The notes beneath the pieces are model-generated. The model saw nothing but the letters and a program-made list of their open reading frames with translations. It had not been told where the DNA came from and ran no database searches. Source: Selaginella tamariscina (taxonomy: Eukaryota; Streptophyta; Lycopodiopsida; Selaginellales; Selaginellaceae). Taken from it: a stretch of 64,000 bases of DNA. Shown piece after piece: positions 1 to 34,999 of this stretch. Location of the stretch: positions 256,001 to 320,000 of the forward strand of contig PUQB01000022.1 in the NCBI GenBank assembly GCA_003024785.1, read 5' to 3'. Position 1 is the stretch's first letter; every line of letters begins with the position of its first letter. The position numbers were made by a program, and so were the translations under genes.

Positions 1-800
1 GTACTGCACCGTGCCCAAGAAACGCTGGACTTCCTGTACTGTACGGGACGAGGGAACTCTCGAACAGCTCGCAACTTCATTGGATCCACCTGTAAACCCT
101 CTCGAGATATACGGTAACCCAAGTAAGTGGTGTCGGTCGAACCAAACACACACTTTTCAAGTTTCAACTTCAGGCCAACTTCTCGAAATCGATCAAGAAC
201 GCGCCGTACATCACGAATGTGATCCTCCCAAGAACCAGACCCATGAATGAGCACATCGTCGATAAAATCGGCAGTGATATCAGGCATATCGGAAAGAAGC
301 TCATCCATCATGCGTTGAAAGGTGGCAGGAGCTGAAGTCAATCCAAAAGGCATGACCAAAAACTCGTAAAGACCAAATGGTGTCCGGAAGGCCGTTTTTG
401 GAATATCCTCCTCAGCCATAGGAACCTGCCAATATCCTGATGCCAAATCCAACTTAGTAAACCATCGACTCTGACCCAAACGATCTAATAGATCGGCAGA
501 GTTCGGAAGTGGATAGACATCTTTGATGGTAACATCGTTAAGAGGTCGGTAATCCACACAAAATCGGAGAGATCCATCAGGCTTGGGAACCAAATGAGGT
601 TCACATGCCCATGGACTCCGTGACGGACGACACACTCGTTTACCAATCATATCAGTAACAGCTGTTCGCATGGCTGATAACTCCTTTGGTGACCTGCGTC
701 GAACCGGGACTTTGAAAGGCTTTGCATTGCCGGTGGGTATACAGTGTCGAGTCTTCACACGTGCACCTTGGGACAGATCAAATTTGAACAAACTTGCATA
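1..800 (-). pseudogene. E1 reverse transcriptase (broken)
   Basis: No intact ORF remains, but the minus-strand translation shows the reverse transcriptase series: a YRPLN-type motif around 540-560, the FTKLDLASGYWQ-type block around 425-475, the MPFGLTSAPATFQR block around 305-355, and the catalytic FIDDVLIH motif encoded by 246-269. The segment starts mid-domain at base 1 with a VQRFLG motif, the usual end of the gypsy RT palm/thumb. It is the polymerase that copies the element RNA into DNA in cytoplasmic particles. Frameshifts and stops indicate it is dead in this copy, unless they are assembly errors. Confidence 0.8.
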
Positions 801-999
801 CTGTTTCTTAAGTTGTTCGATGCAGTGTGCTCGACACTCAGGTGACGGATCCGGCATTTGAACCTGTTGAGATGAACACCACCCCAAGACCGGAATCAAA
901 GGAGCTGTATGCGTGATACAAACAGCAACAAACTTCTCTGGACGTAAAGGAACAGACTAAAGACACAGACTCCAAGCGTAATACAGGAGGAGAGAGTGA

Positions 1000-3046: not shown

Positions 3047-3964
3047 ATGGCGACCGAAGAAAGGTGGTTGCAGTTGTTCGATGCACTGCAATTGAGCGTG
3101 GCGAATCAACTGCTCTGCTACGAGAAATTCACCAAGGAATGCAGCAGAATGCTAGTATGCCACAGAGTTCCAATCCACACCTTTTATGTTCCAATCCACG
3201 TGTTCGTCCAGATTCTTCAAGGGGGAGGTTGGAGCAGACGTGTACCATTGGTGGGAACATTTTCAAGGGATTGCTGACTACCATGGATGGTCTGACTCCC
3301 AGCGGTTGCGAGAGTTCCCAACGTGTTTGCAAGGACTTGCCTTGCAATGGTACAATGGTGTCCCCGTTCTTGATCGACAAGATTGGAACATCTTATCCCA
3401 GCGTTCAAGCAAGCTTTTGGTAAGCCCGAGGATTTTGCTGCAGCTTTTCGTGAGCTCCATGACTTGAAGCAAGTGTCGGGAGAGACCGTCCAACGATTCG
3501 GGATTAAGTTTCAAAACTTAGTCAATCGTGCAGATCCAAGCATGACAGAACGGTACGATTGGGCTTGTTATGGTCGGCTCTTCGCCCTGATTTGGCTGGC
3601 TTGGTGGAGGGATTTGGTCTTTCGACTGTGGAGGAGGCCTTGCGGATTGCACAAGATTTGAGAACTCGTTGGGGGCAGCACAACGTGTATATCCTGTATC
3701 GGCACCTATTCCTGGGACATCCGATCCTGTTCCGATGGAGGTGGGTGCTGTTCAGATGGAGGACCATCCTCAGGCCGCAGGAGGGGCCCAGGCCAAGCTG
3801 CTGGTCGGCATGGTCGTGGTCGTGGTTGTGGGCGGAACATTCAGTGCTATGAGTGCCGAGGTTGGGGACATGTTGCACAAGCATGTGCAAATCGACATCA
3901 AGTAGCTGCCATCGAGACTGCAGAAGAAGTGGAGACTCTTCCGCAGCCGGAAAACGAGGCGTAG
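3047..3964 (+). pseudogene. E2 Gag with CCHC zinc knuckle (broken)
   Basis: The start chosen is the ATG at 3047 (MATEERWLQLFDALQ), about 70 bases after the primer-binding site. The Retrotrans_gag region is readable in pieces: VYHWWEHFQG and LALQWYNG in one frame, then FKQAFGKPEDFAAAFRELH and ETVQRFGIKFQNLVNRADP in a second, then LVEGFGLSTVEEALRIAQ in a third. The CCHC knuckle CYECRGWGHVAQAC is encoded by 3845-3886, and the frame ends at the TAG at 3962. There are at least four frame changes. Gag is the RNA-packaging shell protein. Confidence 0.82.
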
Positions 3965-4596
3965 TGCATGGGGTGTCAGAGGACCCATGCACTAGGCACA
4001 TTGCACCACCTCTGAAGAACTTGATTCCAGCTCATGGTCGACACTTCCCCGAAGCACCTTTGTTCTTCCATGCTTGTGCGGGCATAGGGGTCTCGAGTGA
4101 GTTACTAGACACCGAGCATTTTATGTTTGTGTTCTTCGGCATGGTAGAAGGAACTCCTGTTTCAGTCCTGGTGGACTCCGGATCCAGTATATCTTCTATC
4201 AATCGATCAGTAGCGGAGTCCTTGCACTTGCACACAGTACCAGCAGAGCGAACTTTGAAGGTAGTGTTTGTTGATAAGCAGTCTTTTGCTCGATCACATC
4301 GAATTGCACATGTGCCTATGGTGTTAGGAGGATACCATCATCTACTTCCGTTGCAGGTGATGCCGAGCCAAGTCCATGACATCATCCTCGGTGTCAATTG
4401 GCTTCGTGCGGTCAAGGCAAGATGTGATTTTAAAATGTGCACGTTGTCTATCCCAGGATGCCCCCCATTGCAGGCTACAGAACATGCACCGAATGGCATG
4501 GCGGCAACATTGCAGGGCATGATGGCGCCTAAGGCAGAGCCTTCTCCAGAGCAACGAGCTAAGGACATCTACCTCGCCAATTCAAACCCATTGTAG
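3965..4596 (+). pseudogene. E2 aspartic protease
   Basis: One frame stays open from upstream of gag's end to 4596. The active site VLVDSGSSISS (Asp at 4174) is followed by VVFVDKQS, VMPSQVHDIILGVNWLRAV and CDF, the standard protease core with its ILG motif. The family usually has D-S/T-G, as here. This is the best preserved domain of E2. The protease is followed by an IPTGTTRPIRMGLRRRSP-type segment in another frame that links to RT. Confidence 0.85.
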
Positions 4597-4609: not shown

Positions 4610-5890
4610 CCTGTTGACTACTCGACATCACATCCCGACTGGTACAACTCGCCCGATCAGGATGGGGCTCAGGCGACGATCTCCAAAGGAGAAGGATATC
4701 CTGAATCGTTGTGTGAGGGAGATGCTAGAGTTGAAGGTGATACGTAAGTCCCGAAGTCCATGGGCAGCAGAACCACACCTAATTCCAAAGCCGGATGGAC
4801 TACACGTTTCACTATTGACTTCAGGCCATTGAACGATGTTTCTGTTCCAGATTCATATCCACTACCAAGGGTGGATGATTTGGTTGATGCATTGGGGAAT
4901 AGCCGGTACTTCACTATCCTTGACATGGCTTCTGGCTATTGGCAGATCCCTATGGCTCCTGAAGATGCAGCAAAGACAGCATTTCGAACACCATCCGGCT
5001 TGTACGAGTTTATGGTCATGCCATTTGGGTTGGTCGGGGCCCCAGCAACCTTCCAGCGGATGATGGATGAGCTATTGGAGGGCTTTGAAGAATTTGCACG
5101 TGCGTACATCGATGACCTTCTTATTCACTCTGCTACGTGGGAGGAGCACCTTCAGCAGTTAGAGCGGGTCCTGCAGCGATTGGTGCAATACGGGCTGAAG
5201 TTGAAAGAGCAGAAGTGCAAGTTCGGATGTACCTCTTTGAAATACTTAGGATTCATTATCACAGCAGAGGGTGTGAAACCGGATCCCAAGAAGACCCTAG
5301 CTGTACGAGAATTTCCTGCTCCTGAGTTAGTGGTGGAGTTGCAGCGTTTCTTGGGAAAGGCAACATACTAGCGAGGTTTGTTCTGCGGTTCTCAGATTTG
5401 ACAGCCCCATTGCGAGGATTGTTAAAACAAGGAGCTCAGTTCGGTGGTCCAAGAAGTGTCAGAAGGCTTCGAGGATGTTAAGGCATTGCTAGGATCTCCA
5501 CCTTTGTTGCGGTATCCGAACTTCGCCAAATCCTTTATTCTTCGACCGATGCTTCAGATGTCGGGTTGGGGGCCAATCTGTTGCAGGAGACTCCAATGGT
5601 CAGCGGTACCCAATCGCTTATGCAAGTCGGAGCCTTACTGATGCAGAAAAAATTATTCCACCACGGACAAGGATGTCTGGCAGTTGTATGGGCCTTTCAA
5701 AAGTTCCATACATATCTCCATGGCTCCAACACATTGTTGGAAACTGATCATGCTGCGTCAACTCAATCATGAAGAGGAGGAATGTGACGGGACGACTTGC
5801 ACGTTGGGCGTTAATTTTGCAAGGGTATCATTTTCGGGTTGTTCATTGCCCAGGGTCTAGCATGGCAGATGTGGATGCGTTATCCCGAGC
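4610..5890 (+). pseudogene. E2 reverse transcriptase and RNase H (broken)
   Basis: RT is largely intact from 4760 to 5371: FTIDFRPLNDVSVPDSYPLP, then FTILDMASGYWQIPMAPEDA, then [20 protein letters not shown], then the catalytic YIDDLL at 5105-5122 and LKYLGFIITAEGVKPDP. A stop follows LGKATY at 5371. RNase H continues in other frames: an AYASRSLTDAEK-type segment near 5625, a DHA segment near 5745-5755, and a VVHCPGSSMADVDALSRA-type end at about 5840-5890. RNase H removes the RNA strand during copying. Frame breaks occur near 4790, 5371, 5440 and 5600. Confidence 0.85.
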
Positions 5891-7768: not shown

Positions 7769-8864
7769 TTAAAGTATCTGCATTGCAACAACTTGACCAG
7801 GAACAGGCAGTTTAATCTCTCTAAACCGAACTGGTTTAGTAGTTAAATCCACAACCCGGATTAAACCATCCACAGAACCACATATCTTACCATTCCAACC
7901 CACAACATTAGCCAACTTCTTAATCCTCTCGTCCTCAACAACACTAACCCACCGCACGGTACTCTCTTCATACCTCTTTATCCTCCCTGCAGTCTCCTCG
8001 ACAACATAAAACTCACCGGAATAAGCAACCCCGGTGCCGTTCCAGCAACGCGCGTAACACTCTGCGGCATGTCCGACCACGTCTCCGTCTCCGCGTCGAA
8101 CACCGCACCGACCCGTGCAGTAACGACGGAGCCGTGCTGCACACTCGACCGCCGAGGTCGCCTCTCGGCTGTACTTGGGAGACGCCAGCGATGGTACCGC
8201 TCGCCATACCGCGGGTACCGCGGAGGTATCCCAGACCTCCGCCGAGGTTGCAGTGGAGATATCCCATTCGCTACCGCATCCGCTTGCTACAAGTAGCTTA
8301 CCACGCACGGTACCGCAGCAGCACCATCTCCGCGGGGTAATATACCTCGGCCCCGGGACCACGCGCCAGTGTACACATCAAACACCAGGGACTCTCCAGA
8401 GCTGGCTCGATACGACCGACCGATAGTCTCGTCCCGGCCACGACGAACAGCTTGTGGCTGGTGGACGCGCATTGGATGGAGGAGTGCGAGTGAGGGCCGA
8501 GGAAACCCGGACGGGAGAGCTCGAAGCAGCTCGTACCGTGCGGCATCGGCGGAAGTCGGTGCCACTCGGTTGCTACGGGGTCGAACGCATGCCACGCGAA
8601 CGAGGCACCGCTACTGCTTGCGATCAGCACGTACAGCCAGTTGAGATTGGAGTTTCCAATCTCTGTTCTCGCTACGTGGAAGAACGAATTGCACGACCTG
8701 CCCAGCAGCTCCTGCCAGGATTTCGATACGCCCCAGAGACTGTATAGTGATGGTACTCTCGACAGACACTGAGTAGCTAGATGGTCGGGCAGGCCCGGAA
8801 TGAGCGCTCTCTCGTGGCAATCCTCGCCCGCCAGTGACCTCTGTACATCTCTCTTCTTGTTCAT
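7769..8864 (-). pseudogene. SKIP25-like F-box/kelch-repeat protein (frameshifted)
   Basis: The chosen start at 8864 gives MNKKRDVQRS and then ALIPGLPDHLATQCLSRVP, the F-box-like opening of plant SKIP25-type proteins, followed by GVSKSWQELL. Kelch-like segments follow: FDPVATEWHRLPPMPH, HKLFVVAGTR, LVFDVYTGAWSRG (a different frame, near 8380), PRRWCCCGTVRGKLLVASGCG, KYSREATSAVE, GEFYVVEETAGRIKRYEES and WVSVVEDERIKKLANVVGWN. The end is LPVPGQVVAMQIL at 7769. The family acts as substrate receptor of SCF ubiquitin ligases. At least three frame switches are needed (about 8430, 8360 and 8150), so this is a pseudogene or carries assembly indels. It is GC-rich in an AT-rich neighbourhood and is the only ordinary host-type gene here. 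The family is fairly sure, the exact orthologue is not. Confidence 0.72.
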
Positions 8865-8929
8865 CTACACTATAGATCTGAATTTCAGCAGAGGAAGAGC
8901 TCCTACAATGTGGTGGAAATTGCATAGTA

Positions 8930-10630
8930 TGATAATATGATTATTATTATTATTTTAAATAATAAAAAGAATCATATAATAAGTAAAACAAACCTGCATG
9001 CATTTAAAAGAAAAAGCTGCAGCACAAAAAGAAACTGGCTTGTCCGCACGCAATGGTGTTTTTTTAATCAAAAGCTGTTAAATTGTTTTTATATACTACT
9101 GCCAGGAGAATATTACTGTATATACCAAATCAGAAATTTACATAGTCACCTAATTTTATTTTTTTCTCAGTATCGATTCTATGAACACGACAGTTTGGTG
9201 GTGGTCCAATATCGTGCATTTTGCGTATTTTAAAAAATCTTAATTATTATTTTCTTACTATTGACTCTTTATTGTACTTACAAAAAGATAAGCATCTCAA
9301 TGTATAGTATCGTGATTATGAAATAAAAGATAACTTTAACATATGTGGTGTGATACATAAATATATTTAGCAATAACTCTTACTCATTTGTATCGGATAG
9401 TTATATGTACTGACCACTCAACTCAATAGTCTTTGTTATTGTAAAATTTAAAATTATTATATATATTTATTAATGTGAGATATTTTAAAATGCGAATGGC
9501 GACTATCATGTGCCACCTTAACATATTCATGTGGTTGTCATATAGTCGACAGTAGATACGATTTCTTTTCGTATTTATACACATGTACGTGTATGTCGGA
9601 CATTTTTGAATAAAGTTAAATTTATTTTGGAGCAGAAAAAAAGGTATGATTTGGAAGAATGTCACAAGTTGGAAATGTAACTAAGTTGGTGAAAGCCACG
9701 GGGGTTTTCGCTTTAAGGTGTCAATATTTCGCTTTTACATATTATTTTAATATATTTATATACATTTTAATTAATATAATAATATATAAACGCGATAAGG
9801 TAACAAACTGGAAAAGTATAGGCTTTGAACAATCAAGTGCAATGTACGCGTCCGCAAAAGCTTTTATAACGTGTGTATAATGAATTCTATATGGAATCAA
9901 TACACACGTCATATATTTCCTTTTATGCATTATATAAAGCGTACACACATGTGTGTGTATGTGTATGAGTGTGTGTAAAGTATTCAACAAAGGAGACGTA
10001 CACGTATATAAGTTTTGGAGTAAACTTTTGATGTTGACTTTATTTTCTTATATTGGAAATAAAAGTTATATCCAAGTACAATGTATACTGTCAGAGGTTT
10101 AAGGTTTAATATATAGGTATAAATATAAATATATTTATTACTGTTTAAATATATAGACGTATATTAACGCGTCGTATCACATGGGTGTGTAAGAAATCCA
10201 GATATAAATGGACTCGACTATGTAGAGCAAAATTAAGAAATAAATAATTTAAATTTATTTAATTTTTAAGACTTTTGGAATATATATAAAACAATGAATA
10301 ATTAAATGTCTCTCTATGTCTCTCTCACACACACACACGAAGTACCAACACTCTGTCTACTGTAGACTGAAATGAATATCAATATACTTACTCTTAATTT
10401 TCCACAATATAGAAATTTTTCCATATGAGAATAAATATACACTCGTATGTATATTAAACAATACAAACTTGATATTATGTAAAAACACGATGACAGATTA
10501 AGATGATACTTAATAAGTAATTAAAATAATTTTAATAGTAACAATGAGACGATTTATTTATTTTTAATATTATGGTATAATTATGACTAATTAATTAGTT
10601 AAAATTATTATAAACTTTCTTTCTTCTTAT
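8930..10630. other. AT-rich intergenic DNA, no gene seen
   Basis: Reading frames are short and of biased composition. There is an ATT microsatellite at about 8936-8955 and CA/TG-rich stretches near 9930-9980 and 10325-10340. Confidence 0.6.
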
Positions 10631-11320: not shown

Positions 11321-11643
11321 TTTGCAGAATATAGCCCCCTCTATTTCAATACTATTTAGGAGGGATTTCAGATGTTTATATGTTATGACATAAAAGAAAA
11401 TCTAATAACACATTAAATTTTTTTATGTCGGCTACAAATTGAACATTACACCACACGATTGTCTAAATACACCCATACACACCCAAATATACATTACTAA
11501 CACATGGAATACACCCCAATTAAGCATCACACATCAAAAAAAACTTAAGAATGTACTCAAGAAACCCTTGGGAATTAAGGTAAATAATTAATTTTTCTTT
11601 AGTTTTTTTATACACGTCCTAACAGGGGGCCATGTTCTGCAAG
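11321..11643. mobile_element. Second MITE-like element, about 320 bp
   Basis: The left end TTGCAGAATATAGCCCCCT at 11322 and the right end at about 11622-11642 are inverted repeats matching about 17 of 20 bases (consensus TGCAGAAYATRGCCCCCTST). The interior is AT-rich and non-coding. I cannot find a convincing target duplication, so the edges are approximate. Confidence 0.55.
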
Positions 11644-13845: not shown

Positions 13846-14743
13846 CGGTGCAGTACGATCTGAAAGATGATCACAAAACGACCCAGATATTGTACCTTGC
13901 CAAGAAAGCGTTGCACATCATTCACACACTTCGGCGTAGGGAACTTCAAAACTGCAACTAGTTTGTCAGGATCGACTTGCAAACCTTCACGTGAAATGCG
14001 ATAACCCAGATAAGTGGTGTCCTTTGATCCAAACACACTTAGATGGCTTCAACTTCAAACCAACTTCCCGCAGCGATCCAAAACCTTACGTACATCACCG
14101 ACATGCTCCCCACGTTCCATCCGAATGGATCAAAACATCATCGATGAAATCGCAGTCACCTCCGGCATGTCGCAAAGAACCTCGTCCATCATACGCTGGA
14201 AAGTTGCTGGAGCATTGCTCAAACCGAAAGGCATCACCAGGAACTCGTACAGGCCAAATGGTGTCGAAAAGCAGTCTTGGGAATGTCCATGTCAGCCATC
14301 GGAACTTGCCAATATCCAGATGCGAGATCTAACTTGGTGAACCAACGGCTCCGCCCCAGTCGATCCAAAAGGTCTGCAGTATGAGGAAGTGGGTACACAT
14401 CTGAGACGGTTACCTCATTTAACGGGCGATAGTCAATGCAGAATCGAACGCTCCCATCAGGCTTCGTCACAAGGTGAGGTTCGCACGCCCAGGACTTCCG
14501 GATAACACCCTTCTCCAACATCTCTTTGACATTCGCTCGTAAGATCTTGAGCTCCTTTGGTGATCGACGCCGAACAGGTACCTTGATTGGCCTAGCTTCT
14601 CCAGTTGGAATAGGGTGGCGTGTCGCAATCTTGGCCCCAGATGACAAGTCGAAGTTGAAAAGATCAGCATACTCCTTCTTGAGTTGATCAACAACTACAG
14701 CACGACGATCATCTGATGGATCCAAAAAGAAAAGGAAGAGCAT
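13830..14743 (-). pseudogene. E3 reverse transcriptase (broken)
   Basis: Starts with an ATRHPIPTGEARPIKVPVRR segment, then [40 protein letters not shown] and, after a frame change near 14270, the [14 protein letters not shown] block and the catalytic FIDDVL motif encoded by 14131-14148. The end is TTYLGYRISREGLQVDPDKL and VQRFLGKVQYLGRF (14036-13830). It is closely similar in style to the RT of E1. Confidence 0.87.
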
Positions 14744-15030
14744 GAAGGGAAAATGGTTGGAAATAAGGGTGAGACAAAAGTGATGGAAGCAGAGGTGGAA
14801 GCAGATGGACGAAGTGGAATAGAAGTAAGAGGAATGGAAGAGTCAAACAAGGGGGAGACTTTTCAAAGTCACACTTGGCATGATTGCGAGTTAACCAATC
14901 CATACCAAGAATAAGGTGAAAAGCTTGACTCGGCACCACCCGCAAAGATTGAAGCTCGAGCTCACATCATCCACACGAACAACAATGTCCACTTCATCCC
15001 GCGAACAAGCATGAGTATGTCCGTTGCCGT
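14709..15030 (-). pseudogene. E3 protease, C-terminal part
   Basis: The minus frame 14945-14709 reads MRVVPSQAFHLILGMDWLTR and NHAKCDF, the region after the protease active site, as in E1 (FDIILGCDWL) and E2 (HDIILGVNWL). The active-site half falls at or beyond the N gap. Confidence 0.75.
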
Positions 15031-15047: not shown

Positions 15048-15069
15048 NNNNNNNNNNNNNNNNNNNNNN
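15048..15069. other. Assembly gap (22 N)
   Basis: A run of 22 N. Sequence changes completely across it: an E3 protease on the left, and on the right a CCGGATTAATCCGCCGC motif followed by AT-rich DNA. Confidence 1.
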
Positions 15070-15720
15070 AAGAGGCGAAAAAAAATGGCCGGATTAATCC
15101 GCCGCCCCGGCTAACCGAGAATATTAAGTTAAAGTATATTTAAACGGGATAAATCCCTAACAGAATATATTGTAATCCTAATGCATTCCTAAATCCCTAA
15201 ATTCTAAAATTTAAGAGAGAATGTAAGAGAGTGAATCTTTATAAATATATCTAAATTTGTTTATAATACTTACTTGTAAACAGCACTGAAGGCGCCGTGC
15301 TTTCCTATAAACAATAGCGCACCCAATTTAATGTCGCTCCTGAGCTGATCACTAAGAAGAAAAAAGAAAATCTGAAGAGTGAAAATGAAGAAACCCTTGC
15401 CGGAGAAAGAACCAGATCTGAATTTGAGTGGGAAATTAAATTATTTTCAAATTTACATGTCAGATAATACTTATGTCAGAAATTCGAAATTTTTGAAATA
15501 ACAAAAAGAAAATTTAAGATGAGTTGAAACAAATAACCGAGTCTGACATATATACTCTCCAATTCCAATGAGTGTTTTAAAATTGCATTTAATGTTATTC
15601 AAGTGCTTCAAGCTGTTTAATATTACGAAATTTTTGTAATTATTCTACATTCTTAATATTCAAGTATATATTATTAAGTTTATATTATATATATATATAC
15701 ACTAATACAATAAATAAATT
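15070..15720. other. AT-rich DNA, one palindrome relative at the start
   Basis: GCCGGATTAATCCGCCGCC (about 15091-15109) matches the palindrome family of 18318-19375. The rest is AT-rich with no convincing gene. Confidence 0.6.
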
Positions 15721-15730
15721 GATATATTAT

Positions 15731-16456
15731 TATGTATCATTTAAAATATATTCATAGTCTGTTTATTATTATTATTTTCTTAATTACTCGAGTAATTAAT
15801 TTACATTTCCTACTATTAATGGGATATTCTTTATTATTTTCTTAATATTGAAAGAATATTCAATATTAAACCTGATTATCATAATTAAATTAGTCTTATT
15901 CTTAATTATCTCAGTAATTATTCTACATTTGTATATATTAATGGGATTTTCTCAATTAATTTGTTATTATTTCAAGAATATTCCTATGTTAAACCTTATT
16001 ATCAATATTAAATTAATATATATTATTAAAACTATATAGATATATATTAGATAAAATGATGTATTATTATGTATAATTTAAAATATGTTCATAGTGTGTA
16101 TATTAATTTCATTTCTTAATTACTTGAGTAATTAATCTTCTTTATATTAATGATATTCTTTATTATTTTCTTATTATTCCAAGAATATTTCAATATTAAA
16201 CATGATTATCATAATTAATTTAGTTAATTATTTCAAGTACTTGATCTACATTTGTATATATTAATGGGATTTTCTCAATTAATTTCTTATTATTTCAAGA
16301 ATATTCTAATGTTAAACCTTATTATCAATATTAAATTAATATATATTATTAAAACTATATATGGCTATATATTAGATAAAATCATATATTATTATGTATA
16401 ATTTAAAATATGTTCATAGTGTGTATATTAATATTATTTTCTTAATTATTCGATGT
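15731..16456. repeat. Tandem repeat, period about 325-337 bp
   Basis: The block starting TATGTATCATTTAAAATATA at 15731 recurs at 16068 and 16393. Each unit also carries ATTAATGGGATTTTCTCAAT and GTTAAACCTTATTATCAATA segments. There are about two full copies plus a short third. It is very AT-rich and non-coding, and resembles a young satellite-like duplication. Confidence 0.8.
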
Positions 16457-16654
16457 TTGTTTTGCACATATTATATATAAACACAATCATAAATTTATAT
16501 ATACACGTGCACACGCATTAGAAGCACTTACAAAGACACATATGCACACACATGCACATTGCCTAAACCAAACTTGAGAAATTATATGTTGCTTCTTTAT
16601 TGAAAAACATCATGTTCAACGCATGTATGATCTATATGTACTCAATCTGTGTGT

Positions 16655-17345
16655 ATGTAACACATTGAATTTACACATGTAATATATATGTATGTTTGTG
16701 TGTATACACGTGTGTATGTATATATGTGTACTAATATATGCAATGTGTACATTTTCATTTGTTAACACTCTATCTCTTTCTCATACATACATAGTGTCAC
16801 CATGCATAATCCCTTCTCTCATACATACACACCATCATGATCATGATCCATAATCTTGCCTCTTCTCTATCATACATCACCATGCATGATCATGATCCAT
16901 AATATGTAGCCTGTCTCTTCTCTCATACATACACACCATGCATGATCCATAATATGTACTGATGTTACAATATTATGTAATATGTATAATGTATATTTGT
17001 GTATAACACTCACTCCTCTCGTACATAAACACCATGCATGATCCATCCTAACCCTAAACCCTAAACCCTATGTAACACATTGAATTTACACATGTAATAT
17101 GTATGTATGTTTGTGTGTATACACGTGTGTATGTATATGTGTGTACTAATATATGCAATGACATTGTGTATGAATTTAATTTATTAACACTCTTTCTCTT
17201 CTCTCATACATACACACCATGCATGATCCATGTAAATATGTACTGTCTCTCTTCTCTCAAACATACACACCATGTATGATCCATAATATGTATTATCACT
17301 CTTCTCTCATACATACACACCATACATGATCCTGTACTCTGTCTC
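16655..17345. repeat. 414-bp duplicated block and 'catgcatgatcc' repeats
   Basis: TATGTAACACATTGAATTTA at 16655 recurs at 17069, with a further 80 or so similar bases. Between and after the copies, units of the form CTCTCATACATACACACCAT followed by GCATGATCCATAATATGTA recur at least six times (about 16785-17340). No coding potential. Confidence 0.75.
17047..17070. repeat. Interstitial plant-type telomeric block
   Basis: About three units of CCCTAAA, on this strand as CCTAACCCTAAACCCTAAAC. It abuts the second copy of the 414-bp duplication. Too short to be a chromosome end. Confidence 0.85.
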
Positions 17346-17810
17346 TCTAATATTAATATGTACTAATATGTATGTATGTCTATGTGTATAATACTATGTG
17401 TGTATATATGTATTGCTACACGTGAAACTTTAACACTCTCATGGACACACACGTGTTAAACCCTTGCATAATATTTATTCTTGGGGTGTATGTGATACAC
17501 CCACGCACACGCACATGCTGATAATATAATGAAAGAATATTCGTTTAGGGCGAATCTATAGTTTATTCTTTTTAGGGTTTAAGTATATTCTTAAAAGGAA
17601 TATTTAATTAGGGTTAATATATATTCTATTCCTTTTAGGGTTTAAGTATATTCCTAGGGTTTGTAAGGCGGCGGCGGCGAAATCTCCTTCTCTGTCTCAC
17701 ACAGGTGAGATCTCTCTTTCTCTCTCTCACATGCACACTCCTCTGAGTTTATTTATTTATTTTTATTTACATATATATTTATATGTGTGTGTATCTTAAT
17801 AATATAATTT

Positions 17811-17858
17811 AGATCTCTATCTCTCGCACACACACGCACACTCGTATACATATACACA

Positions 17859-17952
<94 letters not shown>

Positions 17953-18033
17953 CTTCTCTCTCTCTCTTCTCTATAGATCTCTATCTCTCGCACACACACG
18001 CACACTCGTATACATATATATATATATTTGTGT

Positions 18034-18102
<69 letters not shown>

Positions 18103-18320
18103 TCTATTTATTTATCTATATATATGTGTGTGTGTATCTGTATAATTTTATTTATTTATCTATCTCTCGCACACACACGCGTATATACATATACATATAC
18201 ATATATATGTGTGTGTGTGTATCTGTATAATTTTATCTGATTTGACTATCTCTAGCACACACACACACTCTCTTACACACACATATACATATATATATAT
18301 CTGTGTGTGTGTGTGTGTAG
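17811..18320. repeat. TA and CA microsatellite cluster
   Basis: A (TA)n run fills about 17862-17949. A (CA)n run fills about 18032-18077, followed by (TA)n to about 18102. The block ATCTCTATCTCTCGCACACA occurs at 17812 and 17978, and a related version at about 18159, so this is a small tandem duplication carrying microsatellites. Frames read through it are simple-sequence artefacts. Confidence 0.9.
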
Positions 18321-19375
18321 CGGCGGATTAATCCCGCCGTTATATGGTGAGACGTGTGTAGCGGCGAGATTAATCCCGCCGCTATATAATTAGCCACTCG
18401 GTGGCAGGATTAATCCCGCCGCTCATTCATTACCCTCATGAGCGGCGGGATTAATCCCGCCGCCATTTCAGGCCCGAGTGAAGGGCCTGGGCGGCGAGAT
18501 TAATCCCTCCGCCTACGCACGCCCTGTGCGGAATCGGGCGGGATTTATCCCGCCGCCATTGGCCTGCCTGAAGGGCCTAGGCGGTGGGATTAATCCCACC
18601 AGATTCCGCACAGGGCATTGGCGTCCGACGAGATTAATCCCGCCGCGTACGCATGCCCTGTGCAGAATCGAGCGGGATTTATCCCGCCGCCAAAGGCTTG
18701 CCTGAAGGGCCTAGGCAACGAGATTAATCCCGTCGGATTCCGCATAGGGCATTGGCGTCCGGCGGGATTAATCCCACCAACTAAGGCCCAAGTGAAGGGC
18801 CTAGGCGGCGGGATTAATCCCGCCGCGTACGCATGCCCTGCGCGGAATTGGGCGAGATTTATCTCGCCGCCAAAGGCCTGCTTGAAGGGCCTAGGTGGCA
18901 GGATTAATCCCACCCGATTATGCGTAGGGCATTGGCGTTCGGCGGGATTAATCCCGCCGCATAGGGACTGAGTGAAGGGCTTGGGCGGTGGGATTAATCC
19001 TGCCGAGCCTTCAATGCCTGTTGGAGGGATGAATCCGCAACCCTTCCTTTTTTACTCCTTTGGTGAGTCAGACCAACCCCAAACGTTTATGTCTGAAACG
19101 TATAAGGTTTACAACATACCAATGGAGAGGACTGGGAAGGGTGGCGAGATTCATTTCACCATCCCTTACATGGTGGGCGAGATTAATCTTGCCGCCTTTC
19201 TGGAGTCACTGAAGGGGTGTGCTAAATAAATCCTGCCAAGTTCTCTCTGAGACCGAGAAGGGTGGCAGGGTTAATCCCGCACTCCCGTTCAGGGCCTCCA
19301 GAAAGGTGGCGAGATTAATCCCGCCCACTCTTTCAGGAGGCATTGAAGGGGTGGCGAGATTAATCCCGCTGCACC
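18318..19375. repeat. Array of GGCGGGATTAATCCCGCC palindromes
   Basis: About 20 copies of a palindrome centred on ATTAAT. The consensus GGCGGGATTAATCCCGCC equals its own reverse complement. From about 18580 to 18995 copies are spaced about 45 bp apart. A variant with ATTTAT in the centre alternates with the standard form. The spacers also recur: GCCCTGTGCGGAATCGGGCG, GAAGGGCCTAGG, GGGCATTGGCGTCC and CGTACGCATGCCCTG. Arm changes are often compensated (GGTGGGATTAATCCCACC, GGCGAGATTTATCTCGCC). Copies decay toward 19375. GC content is high between AT-rich flanks. The function is unknown. Confidence 0.9.
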
Positions 19376-19475
19376 TTCCATATGAATATATATATGTATT
19401 AGTATATATAAGTTTGCATATCTCTTATTTTTACATCTTATTTATATTCGATCAAATAGCCAGTAAACTATGTAA

Positions 19476-19561
19476 AACTGTCTAAAGCTCACATTTGTGG
19501 TGGTTCTAAAAACAAATATATCTTTCTTTTGCACTAGCACAAAGGTGAGCTTTGGACAGTT
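19476..19561. repeat. Inverted repeat (hairpin) downstream of the palindrome array
   Basis: AACTGTCTAAAGCTCACATT at 19476 is matched in reverse complement by a segment ending at 19561 (read back: AACTGTCCAAAGCTCACCTT). Arms are about 24 bp with two mismatches and the loop is about 37 bases. It could be a hairpin or the edge of a small element. Confidence 0.7.
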
Positions 19562-21104
19562 AATTCCGTCCACTTCTCTCTGTGTATTATTTTTGTGTAT
19601 TCGGGTTTATACAAGTGTGTGTGCGTTTTATATGATTTGTATTCATAATGTATTATTTTGCAGAAGGACAATTTAATTAAACAAGGAGATTAAGTCATTA
19701 GTATGGAGTCGTCGTCAATTCAGGGTAAGAATTAAAATAAAATTTGTTATACTCGGATATGTGCTTGAAGAATTAATCATTTTTGTATTCAGATGTGGAA
19801 TTGAGGTGGCATTGAAGACGAGAGCAGGAGAAGAAATGGGCAAGGGATTTGAAATCAACTTGGCCATATTTCAAACTAAATGGGAAGCGCATTGGAACAA
19901 CCATGGTTGCTGTCAAACTAACCTCTATCACATCGCATGGACAAGCAAAACAATGGAAAGTGGTGTGCTAGTCAAGCATCCGAAAGCATGCTGCAAACCC
20001 AGATTGAGCGATGCTCGAAAACTATGCCTTGTTCCATCCAATGTCACGTTCTCGGTCCAAAGGTCACCAGTTACAACATTAATTTCGGGTGGTTTTGTCG
20101 ACTTGTGAATAATGACGTTCACGTGTTCATTAATGATGTTGACCGTGGAGTTCTTCTTCAACTCAACGAAAGCCCATCTATGGAGGAGATCCAACTGGAT
20201 GTTTATTTCGAAGATCTTCAGACTCATCGAGTAGGTGTATTCTCAGCAGAGATTGCTTCACAATACAAAAATCCACAAGTGGAGCAATCGTCCCTCTTCA
20301 CATTGAAGAAGAACACAGCGACACCATTAAGGAGATTGAGAGGGTGGCTTGGTCTCAGGTTCTTTATAGATCACGTTCAATTTGCTTAGCAAATTTCGGG
20401 AGCTGAAAGAATGTGCCGAGAACATTAGAACAACATCAATCGGGGATCACACATGTTGATTCGGATCATAGAAGAAAATCATTAGTCGTTTTGTCAGCTG
20501 CACCTGTGGCGTCCCATGCTGCAATAAGCCATAAGGAAATGATGTTAGATGATAGGATTTACGAGTGTAGGGTTAAGTATTGCAGCGTCAACCCAAACTT
20601 TAATTACATGCCACTCAATCAGGAACGTGTAGCTGAGCTCATGGAGAAGATGAAGGATGACAATTCTTACACCGTTCCACATAATGCTGTTTTGTGTGCA
20701 TACTACGAGAGAAATAAAGGCGCTGACAAAGTGTGGATCACAACACCGGAACAAATGAGGAAGGTTCAGACGGAGAATAGAAAATCAATCAAGTACTACA
20801 TCATTAGTGGCCAGCACATAATAATGGCAGCCCAACGACTTCTCGATGAACACAACAAAGGAACGATGGCAACAAAACTTTTCGAGCATACCCGTGAGAA
20901 GCTGACGGAAAAGATCGGCGTTTTTAGCAAAGCCGAATCTCACAATGAGCAGTACCATAAGTTATCAGCGGAATGGGACACTGCAGATACCAACCACTAC
21001 AATAGCAAAATATGGGAGAAGTTCAAACACACGCAAGCCGTGTGGGAATCTTTCAGCGACCACAAAGAGCTACTGCAGGGAATACACAATCTGCGGACTA
21101 TCGG

Positions 21105-21166
21105 GTAAGCAAATTGTTTGGGGGGATTTATCTTGCCGGTATATTAATTTGTCTTTTTTCTCAGAG
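21105..21166 (+). other. Intron in methyltransferase gene
   Basis: Donor GG|GTAAGC, acceptor TTTTTTCTCAGAG|AGTT. Splicing at the second AG joins ...TIG to VEEIVAVDFAQ without a stop; the first AG would put TAG in frame five codons later. Confidence 0.7.
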
Positions 21167-22006
21167 AGTTGAAGAAATTGTAGCAGTTGATTTTGCCCAG
21201 GTGGGCGGGAAGGAAACATCCTTTTTGATGATGTTGATTTCTTGTCCCGAGGATAGGATCTTTGCGAAATGGTTGGGGATTATGGAATCCTTTGCAAAAG
21301 GAACACTGAAGAAGAAGCAGACAAGTGAAGTGGAGCCCTCAGAGAAGTCTGCAAAGAAACTCAATAAGACGCCGAAGGCTAAGTCTGTTCAATCTATAAA
21401 GGATGTAGACAACGATTTCAAGCTCACATGGTTGAAGCCTTTAAATGGAACAACGATGGAGGAGATGGAAGTCTTGGCTGATTTGGTGATTGATGGCAAA
21501 TTACAGATTAACAACAGCAGCCCCACCTCTCCTTTTCATCTCAAGGCAATGGAGTTGAAGACGGTCAGGCACTTCAAGGAGTGGTTGGGAATACACTGCC
21601 ACAAACTGGGTTGGATTTCGGCTTCAACATACGAAGAGGTCAGCAAATATTTGCATGTGACAAATGATGATATGCTTGTCGAATGGGTGAATCAATCGGA
21701 AGATCTGAGCAAGAATCTATTGCACGCCAACGCCAAAAAGGAGAACATTGTGATGACGCCTTCTCTTATGGCAGTCCTTCAGCAGGGAGAACCGAGTTGA
21801 ACCTTATAAAAGAGGATGCTACGAATCACGACAAGCCCTACAGATGTTTGTTGTTGGATTCGGAGACTTTATGGGGTACCATCACTGCTTGTAGGAAACC
21901 GTTTCAATTGTTCGTGATGGATCGGGGGTGTCAAAAAATCCTTTGACAGACAGGACACTAGAGGATTTGGTGAAGAAACTTAGTCGTGCAAGTATATACA
22001 AAGAAG

Positions 22007-22060
22007 GTATTTATTATTGAATTCAATACTTGCACTCTTGACTGATATCTACGTTTTCAG
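22007..22060 (+). other. Intron in methyltransferase gene
   Basis: The 54-base intron has donor G|GTATTT and acceptor CGTTTTCAG|GTAT. Splicing removes an in-frame TGA and restores KEGIYFLILAHVTDTF in the frame of the methyltransferase exon. Confidence 0.8.
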
Positions 22061-22911
22061 GTATTTATTTCTTGATTCTTGCTCATGTCACCGATACCTT
22101 TGCCTTCTCCTTTGCCAAGAGGAATAAACATCGTTGGACAGGATTTTATATGAATGATGCTGATCCGAAGTGCATTGATTCGGTAGTTCACTTGGTTGTT
22201 AAGAATGCGCCAAACAGTTTCAAACTTCCAAATGACTGGCCAAGCATCTGTTTGCACTCCAACGACCTTGAACCTCCATCCAATACACCGATAGCTGAGA
22301 GTGACGTATTCGGCAATGTACGTTATCCAAACATCACAAGTCAAGCGGCACGGAGCATCGTCAACTTGATCAGGGGTCCTCACAGTGATGCGTGGGTTTT
22401 TGACTACTGCACTAGGGGGTCCGTCTTGAAGGAGTGTTACCTTCGGGATACATGTGTATTTGCCGTTGAAAAGGATAAGACCATGGTTGAGGATTTGAAC
22501 AAGTGGATAGATAGGTTCTAACCTGACTACCCCAACGAATCCATAAGGAGTATTTGAGAAAGTTCCCTCCAATAAGTGCGATAGCTCTGAAGACGAATCT
22601 GGTTCAATCTCGGAGTCTGAGGACGAACTTCAATCAGATATTAGACCGGAAGTTATCTCGAGGAGTACAGAACATTCGCACACTCCATTACCCATGGAAA
22701 CATCAATAGATACAGAAGATCTGAACCATCTCACAAGCGGCTTAGACCTTCTTCGCCTCACTCAGAAGGTAATAGCGAAGAAGAATTGTTAATGAGTTCT
22801 TAGAGTGACGAATAGTTGTAAATGAGTGTAACATAAGGCATTTTTGTATATTTCGTTTATATTTGTACAGAAAATAAATTCTCAAGGATTAATGAAGCTT
22901 TTAGTTCAAAC

Positions 22912-23972
22912 ATGGGTCACACATTAACAAGGTAAATAATATACCTTGATAATTTTAAGGTCAGCTAATTATCATTTTGCAGATGTAATGAAACAATTGA
23001 GAACATGGATTTTCAGCATTGGCATGAGGTAAGAGAGGGGTTTGGCGACAATTTCTTGTGCCACATGTCAGAATGACAGAGTTCATGCAGGAAATGGATA
23101 ATAATGCAGCTCAAAACATCGTTACCATGGGGGCCACTTCAGTTTTTTCATCATCATTTTTATTGGCTTCAGTTCCGAAATCAATTTCTTCAGCGCATGC
23201 AATATCTGAATCTTGTAAGGATGATGTACAATTAAATGATGAAGGGATAGGCAACGAGATAGTGGCAACGGATAAATGTGAAAGGGAGCAAACAAGTGAT
23301 TTGCAAAGTATTCAAGAGGCAACGCTATCTCATGTTACTCATGGCCATATTGTGTTGTTGGATGTCAATGGTGTTCTGCTTCATCGACAAAGGCCCGAGG
23401 ATAGGAAAAAAGAAATCAAACAAGGAGATTTCATTCCTTGTCATGGTAAATTTCGATATGATATTATTTTTCGTCCAGGGTTGGATCGTCTCTTTCAAAA
23501 GCTTAAGGAGATGGGTGCGCTTGTGGGATTTGGTCATGCATGCAGATTCATAACTTAACACCGCTGTTGAATTTGCTTAAGAAACATTGTAGTGTTGCAG
23601 AAGAGGTGATTCGTAAAGATTGGATTTTTGACCAGCGAATGTTATAAACCTCTCGAATTTCACAATATAAGAAAGGAAAGCAAGCCATACTTCTTCAAGA
23701 ATGAAAGAATAATTGGGACTCATGGGGAGATCAGTCGCTTAAGGATAATGAAGAATGCACATATCTTAGTAGTAGACGACTCTCCTCAGAAGGCTATGCT
23801 CAACCAAAACATTGCTTGTATTCATCCAATCACTTTCGATCCATATTCTGATACTGATATCATGGATGAGCTAGTGAATACTTGGATACGTGCCTCAGAA
23901 AGAAGAATCTCGAAAATTTTTGTGAGCAGTATCCACCGTATCAAACATTTCCTGAAGCTTTTCTTTTCGTGA
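22912..23972 (+). pseudogene. FCP1/NIF-like HAD phosphatase domain protein (spliced, frameshifted)
   Basis: A likely first exon is the ATG at 22912 to 22931, with an intron at 22932-22982 (GT-AG). A second exon continues from 22983, and the main body runs 23058-23558 in a different frame. The N-terminal 90 residues are low in recognisable features. The catalytic segment HIVLLDVNGVLLHRQRPEDR starts near 23344, then FRYDIIFRPGLDRLFQKLKE. After a frameshift near 23535 come IHNLTPLLNLLKKHC and KDWIFDQ. After another near 23630, ILVVDDSPQKAMLNQ and IHPITFDPYSD lie around 23760-23850, the second half of the HAD fold. Typical FCP1 enzymes have DLDET at the nucleophile; here it is DVNGV with the second Asp replaced by Asn, as in some plant relatives, so activity is doubtful. 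It lies about 110 bases after the methyltransferase stop in the same orientation. Confidence 0.72.
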
Positions 23973-24095
23973 TTTTGAATTTTATAAAATGAAGGATAGC
24001 AACCGGGCGCTTTATAATATTATTCTTAAGGAACGTCATTTTTAGATGAGCCTTTATGCAGACCTGGTCTTATTACATCTTATGTATTAACAAGG

Positions 24096-24260
24096 ATGGC
24101 AACTCCCAATTGCATTCGTGAGAGTGTTAAGTGGTGGCAACAACATCAAGATATTGACCAAAATGATTTGATTAATCCGGAGAGTGATGATTTAGACAAA
24201 ATGAGGAAATTTCTCTGTATGGTTAGGAAGAAAGTATTTATAAATAAATTAACATGTTGA
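24096..24260 (+). CDS. Small ORF, 54 aa, unrecognised
   Basis: The ATG at 24096 opens MATPNCIRESVKWWQQHQDI and closes at the TGA at 24258. Composition is ordinary rather than low-complexity. It may be a last exon of the phosphatase-like gene or of an unrelated remnant. No family is recognised. Confidence 0.3.
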   Translation: MATPNCIRESVKWWQQHQDIDQNDLINPESDDLDKMRKFLCMVRKKVFINKLTC

Positions 24261-24529
24261 TAAGAAAATGATTTCATTTGTAATTATGTTTGATAGTATT
24301 TCTTCATTATTGTAAACTATTTTTAGAATAATATGAATATTCTAAGATATTTTAGGAATATTCCTTACTAAGTAAGGTTATTGAAGGATTAATTAATTAA
24401 TTAATTAATATTTCACGTATCATGCCCACTTTAGTTACAACGTGCATCTATAGAGCCTCATCTTCAAAAACATTGTGCAACTATGATGGCCTTCAAAGAG
24501 TTTAAAGTAGCAAGTCACAATGAAGGGAG

Positions 24530-30699: not shown

Positions 30700-32090
30700 C
30701 CACGACTTTAAGGACGTTTTTGACAAGCACAAGGCTGCAGTTCTTCCTGTTCACAGGTCCTACGACTGTCCTATTGATCTTGCGGAAGGAAAGACTCCAC
30801 CATTCGGACCGATTTATGCATTGTCACCCACAGAGTTGGAGGTTCTTCGTCAGTACATCGAGGACAACTTGGCATCCGGCTTCATTCGTCACTCAAAGTC
30901 CCCTGCAGGAGCGCCTATCTTCTTTGTCAAGAAGAAGGATGGGAGTTTACGTTTGGTTGTGGACTACAGGGGTTTGAATCAAGTCACCATTCGGAATCGG
31001 TACCCGTTGCCATTGATCCCGGAACTTCTCGATCGGCTGCGAGGAGCAAAGGTGTTCACGAAGATCGACTTACGAGGGCCTACAACCTTGTACGGATTCG
31101 TCCCGGCGATGAGTGGAAGACTGCCTTTCGTACAAGGTATGGACATTTTGAGTACACGGTAATGCCTTTCGGCCTTACCAATGCCCCAGCGTGTTCCAAC
31201 ACATGGTGAACGACATCTTTCGTGACTTCTTGGACCAGTTTGTGGTGATCTACCTCGACGACATCTTGATTTTCTCCAAGGACCAGGCGGCACATGACAA
31301 GCATGTACGACTAGTTCTAGAGCGGCTTCGCGAGCATGGCCTGTACGCGAAGTTGGAGAAGTGTTTTTTCGATAGGGATTCGGTGGAGTTCTTGGGCTAC
31401 ATCGTCTCTCCTGCTGGCGTTTCCATGGACATGCACAAGGTGAAGACCATCGTGGAGTGGGAGAGGCCCAAGTCGGTACGAGATGTACAATGTTTCCTTG
31501 GCTTTGCAAACTTCTACAGGCGGTTCATACAGGACTTCTCCAAGCGTACTTCCACTCACAGAACTCACCAAGCGCACAGGTTTTCTCTTGGTCCGACAAG
31601 GCGGAAACATTCACAACACTCAAGGACGTTTCACGACAGCTCCGATTTTAGCACATCCTGACCCTTCTCATCCTTTCTTCATTGAAGCAGATGCCTCGGA
31701 TTTTGCAGTAGGATCCGTCCTATCGCAAGTTGGAGAGGACAAGTTGCTTCATCCTGTAGCTTTTCACTCTCGTAAGTTCCTGTCGGCGGAGATCAATTAC
31801 GAGATTCATGACAAGGAACTCAAGGCCATTGTGGATTCGTTTGAGGAGTGGCGGCATTTCCTGGAAGGTGCTGCACATCCTGTACAAGTTCTTACGGATC
31901 ACAAGAACCTGGAGTACTTTCAAACGGCTCGAGTTCTCAGTCGGCGACAGGCTAGGTGGGCAGAGTTCCTATCACGTTTTGACTTCGTCATCGTCTACAG
32001 GCCCGGTTTTCGGAATGGCAAGGCGGACGCATTGTCTAGGCGCTCTTACCTTGCACCAAGCCCGGGCGATCCTGCATTTGACTGTCAAAG
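30700..32090 (+). pseudogene. E4 reverse transcriptase and RNase H
   Basis: RT starts around 30700 (a [10 protein letters not shown]-type segment). [40 protein letters not shown] and [18 protein letters not shown] lie in 30821-31078. After frameshifts, MPFGLTNAP lies near 31160, and the 31191-31661 frame holds the catalytic YLDDILIF (31251) and [20 protein letters not shown]. RNase H follows in the 31483-32484 frame: HPFFIEADASDFAVGSVLSQ, INYEIHDKELKAIVDSFEEW, VLTDHKNLEYF and FRNGKADALSRR. Frameshifts lie near 31080, 31180 and 31580. Confidence 0.88.
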
Positions 32091-34188: not shown

Positions 34189-34977
34189 CTATTCTTCCAG
34201 CTGTGCTCCAATGTGAGCGTTAATATTTACTAGTCGGGGGTTTTCGTCAGAGCTTATGTTGACCTGCTTGACCGCTGCTTCGGGCGTTATGTTCCACCCA
34301 TACATTGGTCGGCTACGGTACTCTTCCTGGGCCGAGGGGGCTAGACTCGTTATTTCCTTCCACAGAACAGGCCACTTCGGGATTTGAGCTTCCGGAGTGT
34401 CTGTATCGGTTTCTAACCGAGTCATTAGGTATGTAGCGACCGACTCTCGTACTTTCGGTCGAGGGTCCACCTCTCCTAGGACGAATAGCTCTAGCAAGTA
34501 TGCTAGGATGGCCGCTTCGTCCTCATCATCCAGCCCCTCCCCCCAGTCTGGGAGATGGTATTCTTGGGGTTGGGACTCCAAGGGTGGCGCCGAGACTTGT
34601 CTTGCAGCGACGGATATGACTCCTTCCTTGACGGGAAACTGAATCCACTGCTTCTCCCAATCGTGTTGTACCCTTGCGCCCCGGAGCCACGGCCGGCCTA
34701 GGAGCAAGTCGAACCCCCTTTTGGCGTGCATGTCGAGGACGACCACGTTTATCAAGAACTTAATGCTCTGGATCCTGATGCTTACCTTCCTCATGATTCC
34801 CTTGGGAACCACCTTGGTTTGGTTTGCCATGCGTATGAGGAAGGGTGAGGGCTCTGGAGGTGGCATTCCCAGTTGGTGATGAAGTTCTGTGGACATGATG
34901 TTCACGCATGATCCCCCATCTATGATTACGTTGTGGACTGTACGTCCTACCATCTGAACAGGTATGGTCGTCCACAA
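34189..34977 (-). CDS. E5 aspartic protease region, open frame of 262 aa
   Basis: The longest intact frame in E5. The active site is in TVHNVIIDGGSCVNIMSTEL (D-G-G-S instead of D-T/S-G-S), then HHQLGMPPPEPSPFLIRMAN, IRIQSIKFLINVVVLDM and FDLLLGRPWLRGARVQHDW, the ILG-equivalent. The acidic stretch LPDWGEGLDDEDEAAILAYL follows, as in E6 and E7 (EGYDWFNGIDNQEEVEIL). Gly at the second active-site position is common in Tat-type plant elements. The ORF ends just before RT. Confidence 0.8.
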   Translation of the reverse strand: MWTTIPVQMVGRTVHNVIIDGGSCVNIMSTELHHQLGMPPPEPSPFLIRMANQTKVVPKGIMRKVSIRIQSIKFLINVVVLDMHAKRGFDLLLGRPWLRGARVQHDWEKQWIQFPVKEGVISVAARQVSAPPLESQPQEYHLPDWGEGLDDEDEAAILAYLLELFVLGEVDPRPKVRESVATYLMTRLETDTDTPEAQIPKWPVLWKEITSLAPSAQEEYRSRPMYGWNITPEAAVKQVNISSDENPRLVNINAHIGAQLEE

Positions 34978-34999
34978 AGTCTACCACTGTTGTTGCGAC

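What the first reader, a model, noticed from the sequence alone, without database searches (positions are those of the whole stretch)
19703..22803. Bacterial/phage-type ParB-DNA methyltransferase fusion in a spliced plant gene
The sequence shows an ISGQH-type ParB/sulfiredoxin-like segment (about 20800-20860) upstream of a methyltransferase C-terminal block (about 22394-22500: VFDYCTRGSVLKECYLRDT, then an acidic residue in VFAVEKDK). Motif I comes last, as in beta-class N4/N6 DNA methylases. GT-AG introns that restore frame show it has been domesticated or carried in a eukaryotic genome. ParB-methylase fusions are known from phages and bacterial mobile elements. DNA N4-cytosine methylation by horizontally acquired enzymes is known in bdelloid rotifers and has been reported in a liverwort. 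A fusion with a ParB-like domain in a plant would be a distinct, possibly undescribed architecture.
Basis: partly seen in the sequence, partly recalled or inferred. Interest (0 to 1): 0.88.

Follow-up and report, generated by a model that had tools for sequence, protein, structure and literature searches.

The report
Jumping gene's ParB-like accessory gene
The supposed bacterial-type gene is a damaged copy of a gene carried by a very abundant, recently active jumping element of a plant genome, and its ParB-like protein sits beside long arrays of a 16-letter mirror-symmetric DNA site that it may bind.

Summary
The gene at 19703-22803 is real, but it is not a domesticated single gene. It is a decayed copy of an accessory gene of a ~14.9 kb terminal-inverted-repeat DNA transposon (right end at window 24447); 150 of 150 scored places in the genome match it strongly. 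Intact relatives have four exons, three introns and a 976-aa frame under purifying selection (omega ~0.37). The element has a DUF7869 protein, probably the transposase, on the opposite strand.

ParB-like: supported. Two motif blocks taken from two other high-copy families of the same genome beat 1000 of 1000 shuffles; those families are ParB-like/N6_N4-methyltransferase proteins (Pfam ~1e-9). Methyltransferase in the window's own family: not above chance, catalytic motifs apparently lost.

I infer a ParB-parS-like self-recognition system on plant transposons. ParB-methyltransferase accessory genes of algal transposons are published (PMC12477816); I found no report of such arrays in my searches.

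The parts
15070..24447 (+). Remaining part of a family-A transposon copy; the left part with the transposase gene is not in the window
   Evidence: Alignment to fetched copies; complete 14,913-bp copy in contig C627; run of Ns just left of it
18322..19369 (.). Array of 20 copies (up to 3 mismatches) of the 16-bp palindrome GCGGGATTAATCCCGC, about 45 bp apart, in front of the ParB-like gene; one more at 15088-15103
   Evidence: 21 matches in the window, 0.19 expected, no shuffle of 100 above 2
19703..19724 (+). Exon 1 of the accessory gene (ATG...), one base shorter than in intact copies
19793..21104 (+). Exon 2: N-terminal part, ParB-like domain and helical part; frameshifted in this copy
20572..20661 (+). 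ParB-like block 1 (VKYCSVNPNFNYMPLNQERVAELMEKMKDD)
   Evidence: position of the block found in intact relatives, read in the window frame
20788..20853 (+). ParB-like block 2 (IKYYIISGQHIIMAAQRLLDEH)
   Evidence: frame
21165..22006 (+). Exon 3
22061..22803 (+). Exon 4 with the methyltransferase-like block (about 22394-22500) and acidic tail; end by analogy with intact copies
   Evidence: methyltransferase reading not above chance
23073..24260 (+). Broken second reading frame, FCP1/NLI-like HAD protein, open over 391 aa in locus L014
   Evidence: Pfam PF03031 7.9e-12 in L014, 5.1e-4 in the window; frame comparison
24421..24447 (+). Right terminal inverted repeat of the transposon

Best explanation
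The finding is a decayed copy of an accessory gene of a DNA transposon. The element (family A, about 14.9 kb) has 27-bp terminal inverted repeats, a DUF7869 protein gene (probably the transposase) on one strand and, on the other, a four-exon gene for a 976-aa protein with a ParB-like N-terminal half and a C-terminal half that is probably a degenerate DNA methyltransferase. Inferred mechanism: the ParB-like protein recognises the 16-bp palindromes that stand in arrays beside both genes of its own element, and there coats the element, controls both promoters and/or brings copies together; the methyltransferase-derived part serves as a structural or binding module, not as an enzyme. Shown: transposon, copy number, recent spread, intact relatives, splicing pattern in DNA, purifying selection, ParB-like homology to two other transposon families, palindrome arrays. 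Inferred: that this protein binds these palindromes, and what the binding does.
For: 150 of 150 scored places (5703 first-look candidates) match at E <= 4.3e-122; inverted ends 25 of 27 bases alike; right end reached by 18 of 20 fetched copies; DUF7869 3.9e-21 and 2.2e-13; 3 of 18 spliceable copies open over 976 codons; 66 synonymous to 70 non-synonymous codons against 26:74 expected, omega ~0.37; ParB-like blocks 0 of 1000 shuffles, best of 94 decoys 22 against 51; palindromes 21 in the window against 0.19 expected, 41 in a complete element in two arrays, 18-29 sites before the gene in 17 of 20 copies; family B with 8 exact copies of another 16-bp palindrome, family C with inverted half-sites, in the same place.
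Against: ParB_N of Pfam finds nothing and phage-based profiles do not beat shuffles. The arginine expected in the second ParB motif (GxxR, recalled) is missing in family A. Single-sequence structure prediction was useless (pLDDT 34.5). The methyltransferase half is not above chance; the block model for motif IV landed at aa 655-669, not on VMDRRVS. Of 60 mismatched half-positions in the palindromes only 5 are symmetric, so there is no sign of compensating changes. Binding was not tested, and the arrays could serve the transposase.
Confidence: 0.55

Rival explanations
1. The palindromes are binding sites of the transposase or of a host factor, or hairpin-prone satellite units, and have nothing to do with the ParB-like protein.
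For: One array also lies beside the transposase gene; the units lie in tandem-repeat arrays. Subterminal or internal repeats bound by transposases are common (recalled).
Against: Sites are conserved while spacers are not (partly built in by how units were chosen); families B and C, close in their ParB-like part, share a half-site, while distant family A has another palindrome.
Confidence: 0.35
2. The protein is an active N4/N6 DNA methyltransferase that marks its own element, as proposed for the algal proteins.
For: Families B and C keep a recognisable N6_N4_Mtase domain with motif I IGSGTG; the published proposal for Ectocarpus (passage).
Against: In family A motif I reads DYCTRGS and motif IV, by eye, DRRV; no profile match; even in B and C motif IV reads DLPN instead of D/N/S-P-P-Y/F (motif recalled).
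Confidence: 0.1
3. A host gene domesticated from a ParB-methyltransferase.
For: Spliced gene, purifying selection between subfamilies.
Against: At least 150 near-identical copies inside a transposon with defined ends; the window copy is broken.
Confidence: 0.02
4. The N-terminal half is an unrelated DNA-binding domain that only resembles ParB.
For: No direct match to bacterial ParB models; 9 of 12 phage ParB proteins are not picked out by the family B/C template either.
Against: Both blocks found in the right order, 0 of 1000 shuffles; family B/C have DGNHR in ParB position next to a genuine methyltransferase; phage fusion L037 scores in register, 0 of 200 shuffles, L043 2 of 200.
Confidence: 0.15

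Closest known systems
Sola1-1_Ec32 of the brown alga Ectocarpus and its 1104-aa ParB-like/DNA methyltransferase protein (PMC12477816; passages seen)
   Same: Giant DNA transposon; accessory gene on the strand opposite to the transposase; ParB-like plus methyltransferase protein of about 1000 aa
   Different: Here a genome that is probably a land plant's; DUF7869 protein as probable transposase, not shown to be Sola1; catalytic motifs apparently lost; palindrome arrays, for which the word palindrom- does not occur in that paper
ParB-methyltransferase fusions of phages (twelve phage ParB loci fetched, five of them fusions)
   Same: Order ParB-like then beta-class methyltransferase; families B and C align with them (E 1.9e-6)
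   Different: Family A itself gives no significant match; eukaryotic introns; about 1000 aa against about 410-450
Bacterial ParB-parS (16-bp palindrome parS; recalled)
   Same: ParB-like protein encoded next to perfect 16-bp palindromes
   Different: Dozens of sites in arrays on a transposon; no ParA was looked for; the GxxR arginine is absent in family A; no binding shown

Membership tests
ParB-like/methyltransferase accessory genes of transposons (algal kind) | Gene lies inside a transposon, opposite in strand to the transposase | tested here: met
   transposase role of the DUF7869 protein is inferred
ParB-like/methyltransferase accessory genes of transposons (algal kind) | ParB-like domain | tested here: met
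   Block test against families B and C, 0 of 1000 shuffles; not by Pfam
ParB-like/methyltransferase accessory genes of transposons (algal kind) | DNA methyltransferase domain | tested here: inconclusive
   Family A: 130-740 of 1000 shuffles reach the B/C block scores; families B and C: Pfam 6.7e-10 to 1.4e-9
Beta-class N4/N6 DNA methyltransferase, active | Motif IV (D/N/S)PP(Y/F) and motif I FxGxG (recalled) | tested here: not met
   Family A reads VMDRRVS and VFDYCTRGS; motif IV assigned by eye
ParB/parS | GxxR motif with arginine | tested here: not met
   Family A SGQHTITAA; families B and C DGNHR
ParB/parS | Palindromic sites near the gene, bound by the protein | tested here: inconclusive
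   Sites present; binding not testable with these tools
Sola1 superfamily | Sola1 transposase; 4-bp target duplication (recalled) | tested here: inconclusive
   ATAT at the left of 5 of 6 copies; ATAT on both sides in 2 of the 4 copies with both ends seen; no Sola1 reference at hand

The most novel reading that the evidence does not exclude
Plant transposons of at least two transposase types carry ParB-parS-like recognition systems. Each family has its own 16-bp palindrome array (or inverted half-sites) beside its genes and a cognate ParB-like protein with a methyltransferase-derived tail, site and protein diverging together. They serve to mark, coat, cluster or regulate the element's own copies in the nucleus.
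Probability: 0.4. Interest if true: 0.85.

Novelty: new variant of a known kind. Interest (0 to 1): 0.66.

Why it matters
ParB-like/methyltransferase accessory genes of algal transposons have been noticed, with self-marking offered as a guess (PMC12477816, passage). Here a likely target is visible in the DNA: arrays of a 16-bp palindrome beside the gene, and a different palindrome in a second family of the same genome. That makes the question what these proteins do directly testable by a binding assay. It would also mean that selfish elements of a plant use a prokaryote-type recognition system for themselves, on more than one sort of transposon.

Tried and rejected
Domesticated host gene: rejected. 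Pfam, NCBIfam and PHROGs on family A: nothing usable for the ParB-like or methyltransferase-like parts; stray weak hits (XisI, 2OG-FeII_Oxy_5, IL31, PknG_rubred) judged chance. Sequence search of solved structures: nothing credible. Protein database: no relative; since the phosphatase frame with a clear Pfam match also found none, this database probably says little about plant proteins. Viral contigs: two pattern matches, no relative of the ParB exon; phages: none for the ParB exon, three chance-level pieces for the methyltransferase-like exon. Phage-based HMMs against shuffles: not significant, 175 to 505 of 2000 reach the score, and the full fusion model gave no hit. hhalign of family A at one-sequence depth: ParB region P 0.033 against phage ParB and 0.012 against families B/C, in register; methyltransferase region 0.34 against phages in register and 0.25 against B/C out of register. 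HMM of families B/C against family A: not significant, 69 to 593 of 2000; the later block test with free spacing is post hoc in that sense. My first methyltransferase block model was out of register between phage and plant rows and was redone; there the phage-plus-B/C model reached 37 of 1000 on the whole protein, but at aa 326-385, not in the methyltransferase-like part. Structure prediction of the ParB region: pLDDT 34.5, not used.

Not found in print, searches: (open-access library only; listings seen). Papers of which I saw passages: PMC12477816 (abstract and outline 58), PMC4455052, PMC9033089, PMC10294476. Iyer 2011 and Petroll 2025, cited there, were not seen; Bao 2009 is not held.

Full report
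What was asked. The letters are there. Pfam gives no ParB or methyltransferase match for any exon.

A transposon, not a host gene. Searching the window's own genome (300.7 Mb, 1391 contigs) with the 233-aa ParB frame gave 150 scored places from 5703 first-look candidates, the window included, all with E <= 4.3e-122 and 80-100% identity; by my count 11 of the 150 have a stop inside the matched stretch. I fetched 20 copies. Of these, 18 reach a common right end like the window's...ACTTTAGTTACAACGTGCAT (window 24447), after which flanks differ; 12 loci have these 20 letters exactly. In contig C627 the element is 14,913 bp long and its left end mirrors the right end over 27 bases, 25 alike. The left target reads ATAT in 5 of 6 copies; of the 4 copies with both ends seen, ATAT stands on both sides in 2, not in the other 2. 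Two copies are 99% alike over 6.7 kb and 96% over another 6.6 kb, and the 40 scored left ends (1112 candidates) are at least 99% alike over 163-164 bases: the family moved recently. On the minus strand the left part encodes a DUF7869 protein (3.9e-21 and 2.2e-13 for two exons), which I take for the transposase from its place and motifs (inference). In the window this part is missing, next to a run of Ns at about 15048-15069.

The accessory gene. Exon borders found in the copies give four exons (23, 1318, 844 and 746 nt with the stop in intact copies) and three GT-AG introns. Of 18 fetched copies that could be spliced (in 2 of 20 a border was not found), 3 are open over 976 codons. The window's copy meets a stop at codon 14 and shows 7, 2 and 5 gaps in its long exons against an intact relative. 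Between an intact copy and L019, of the window's subfamily, substitutions fall 37, 37 and 81 on codon positions 1, 2 and 3, with 66 synonymous and 70 non-synonymous codons where 26:74 is expected without selection. Omega is about 0.37 overall, 0.49 in the N-terminal part, 0.21 in the ParB-like part, 0.13 in the middle, 0.44 in the methyltransferase-like part; the short tail had 9 non-synonymous and no synonymous changes. So selection kept the protein, more strongly in the ParB-like and middle parts.

Second frame. Downstream lies a frame for an NLI/FCP1-like HAD protein (7.9e-12 in L014), 391 aa and open in L014; in the 5 other copies compared in which its start was found (window included) it stops early, and in L012 the start was not found. 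Its first motif reads LLDVNGV, with N for the second aspartate of the HAD motif (recalled).

Is it ParB-like? ParB_N of Pfam found no candidate in the genome while ringing in 11 of 14 control genomes, and phage-based models did not beat shuffles. But the methyltransferase family PF01555 rang in 150 of 150 scored places (739 candidates), all over the cut-off, and by eye none lies within 3 kb of a family-A place. Four loci revealed two families: B (C639) and C (C113, C516, C565; C516 looks rearranged), about 51-56% identical in the ParB exon and 71-74% in the methyltransferase exon. Their last exon matches N6_N4_Mtase (6.7e-10 to 1.4e-9) and a phage DNA methyltransferase family (7.6e-12), and their methyltransferase region aligns over 171 columns with phage ParB-methyltransferases (E 1.9e-6). 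Their ParB exon reads ...RRVNPGDLDRLVSSLKKA...KFSCWDGNHRLQALQKLY; Pfam does not call it ParB either. A two-block model from B and C alone finds in the 976-aa protein of family A exactly VKYCSVNPNFNYRPLNQERVAELMEKMKDD and IKYYIISGQHTITAAQRLLEEH, score 51; 0 of 1000 shuffles of the whole protein reach it (largest 48.5), and 0 of 1000 of its first half. Of 94 decoy frames the best had 22. Of 12 phage ParB proteins the best had 37, in register, 0 of 200 shuffles; two more reached 0 and 2 of 200 (the former with one block out of register), and 9 were not recognised. A plain HMM of B and C did not find family A. I conclude that family A probably has the same N-terminal domain as B and C, and that this domain is most likely ParB-like.

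Is it a methyltransferase? Searching only aa 601-920, the blocks V, X and I fall where expected (aa 709-747 and 819-877), but 130 to 531 of 1000 shuffles do as well, depending on the set, and the block for motif IV falls at aa 655-669 instead of VMDRRVS at 698-704; on the whole protein the sets reach no better than 37 of 1000, at a wrong place. By eye motif IV would be VMDRRVS and motif I VFDYCTRGS. The best statement is: probably a catalytically dead remnant, by homology of the N-terminal half and by layout. In B and C motif I is intact (IGSGTG) but motif IV reads DLPN, so activity is uncertain there too.

Transposons of B and C. On the opposite strand before their ParB-like genes (C639, C113) lie long frames of another protein with a weak SWIM match (0.0027, below the cut-off); the family-A transposase finds nothing there (no tblastn match). 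I take it for a Mutator-like transposase from recall; this is not shown, and the ends of these elements were not determined.

The palindromes. The window has 21 matches (up to 3 mismatches, 3 exact) to GCGGGATTAATCCCGC where shuffles give 0.19 on average and 2 at most; 20 lie between 18322 and 19369, all 21 inside the element. The element in C627 has 41, 23 exact: 13 at element positions 3772-4467, beyond the 5' side of the minus-strand frames, 27 at 8240-9734 in front of the ParB-like gene, and one at 11513. In 17 of the 20 fetched copies 18-29 sites stand in the 2.5 kb before the ATG, the last one 342-344 bp before it in 15 of these 17; L014 has 7 (truncated there), L013 none (rearranged) and L028 one (no ATG found; a fixed position was used). 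Median spacing is about 45 bp. In 22 units the 16 palindrome columns are 86-100% conserved and the spacers, away from its edges, mostly 32-50%; units were chosen by similarity to the palindrome, so part of this is built in. Of 60 mismatched half-positions only 5 are symmetric, so compensating changes are not seen. Family B has 8 exact copies of AGTCGGCATGCCGACT (12 with up to 3 mismatches), about 40 bp apart in the main run, between its two divergent genes; family C has no such full palindrome but half-sites TGCCGACT and AGTCGGCA (9 and 10 in C113, 4 and 5 in C565, 6 and 1 in the rearranged C516, 0.09-0.17 expected each), in C113 and C565 mostly just before the gene. B and C, close in protein, share a half-site; A, distant in protein, has another palindrome. 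This is what ParB-like proteins and their own parS-like sites would look like. Three families are few, and no binding was tested.

Mechanism proposed. The accessory protein recognises the arrays of its element by its ParB-like domain and there acts on both promoters, or spreads, coats and clusters copies. Shown: gene, arrays, family-specific sites. Inferred: binding and its effect.

What is known. The Ectocarpus transposon paper (PMC12477816; passages; [quoted passage not shown] The word palindrom- does not occur in its held text. So the kind is known; what seems new, as far as my searches reach, is the probable land-plant host, the DUF7869 partner, the degenerate catalytic motifs and above all the palindrome arrays.

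Noticed in passing
L051-L056 (contigs C516, C639, C565, C113 of the same genome): Two further high-copy families (B, C) with genuine ParB-like/N6_N4-methyltransferase genes, divergent from another transposase-like gene with a weak SWIM match.
   Followed up: partly
window 23073-24260; L014 7020-8195: FCP1/NLI-like HAD reading frame inside the transposon, possibly a captured host gene, with N for the second aspartate of the HAD motif.
   Followed up: partly
L010 8491-9461; L026 right flank: Right ends of some copies abut the left region of other copies, as if inserted into or recombined with them.
   Followed up: no
window 17050-17070; L025 750-870: Short plant-telomere-type CCCTAAA repeats inside the left region of the element.
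   Followed up: no
window 3-956 (-), 4748-5368 (+), 14237-14842 (-), 31152-31658 (+), 34192-34980 (-), 56922-57731 (+): Retrotransposon fragments: reverse transcriptase, aspartyl protease and integrase zinc-binding matches; 6 of 10 frames scanned had a match.
   Followed up: no
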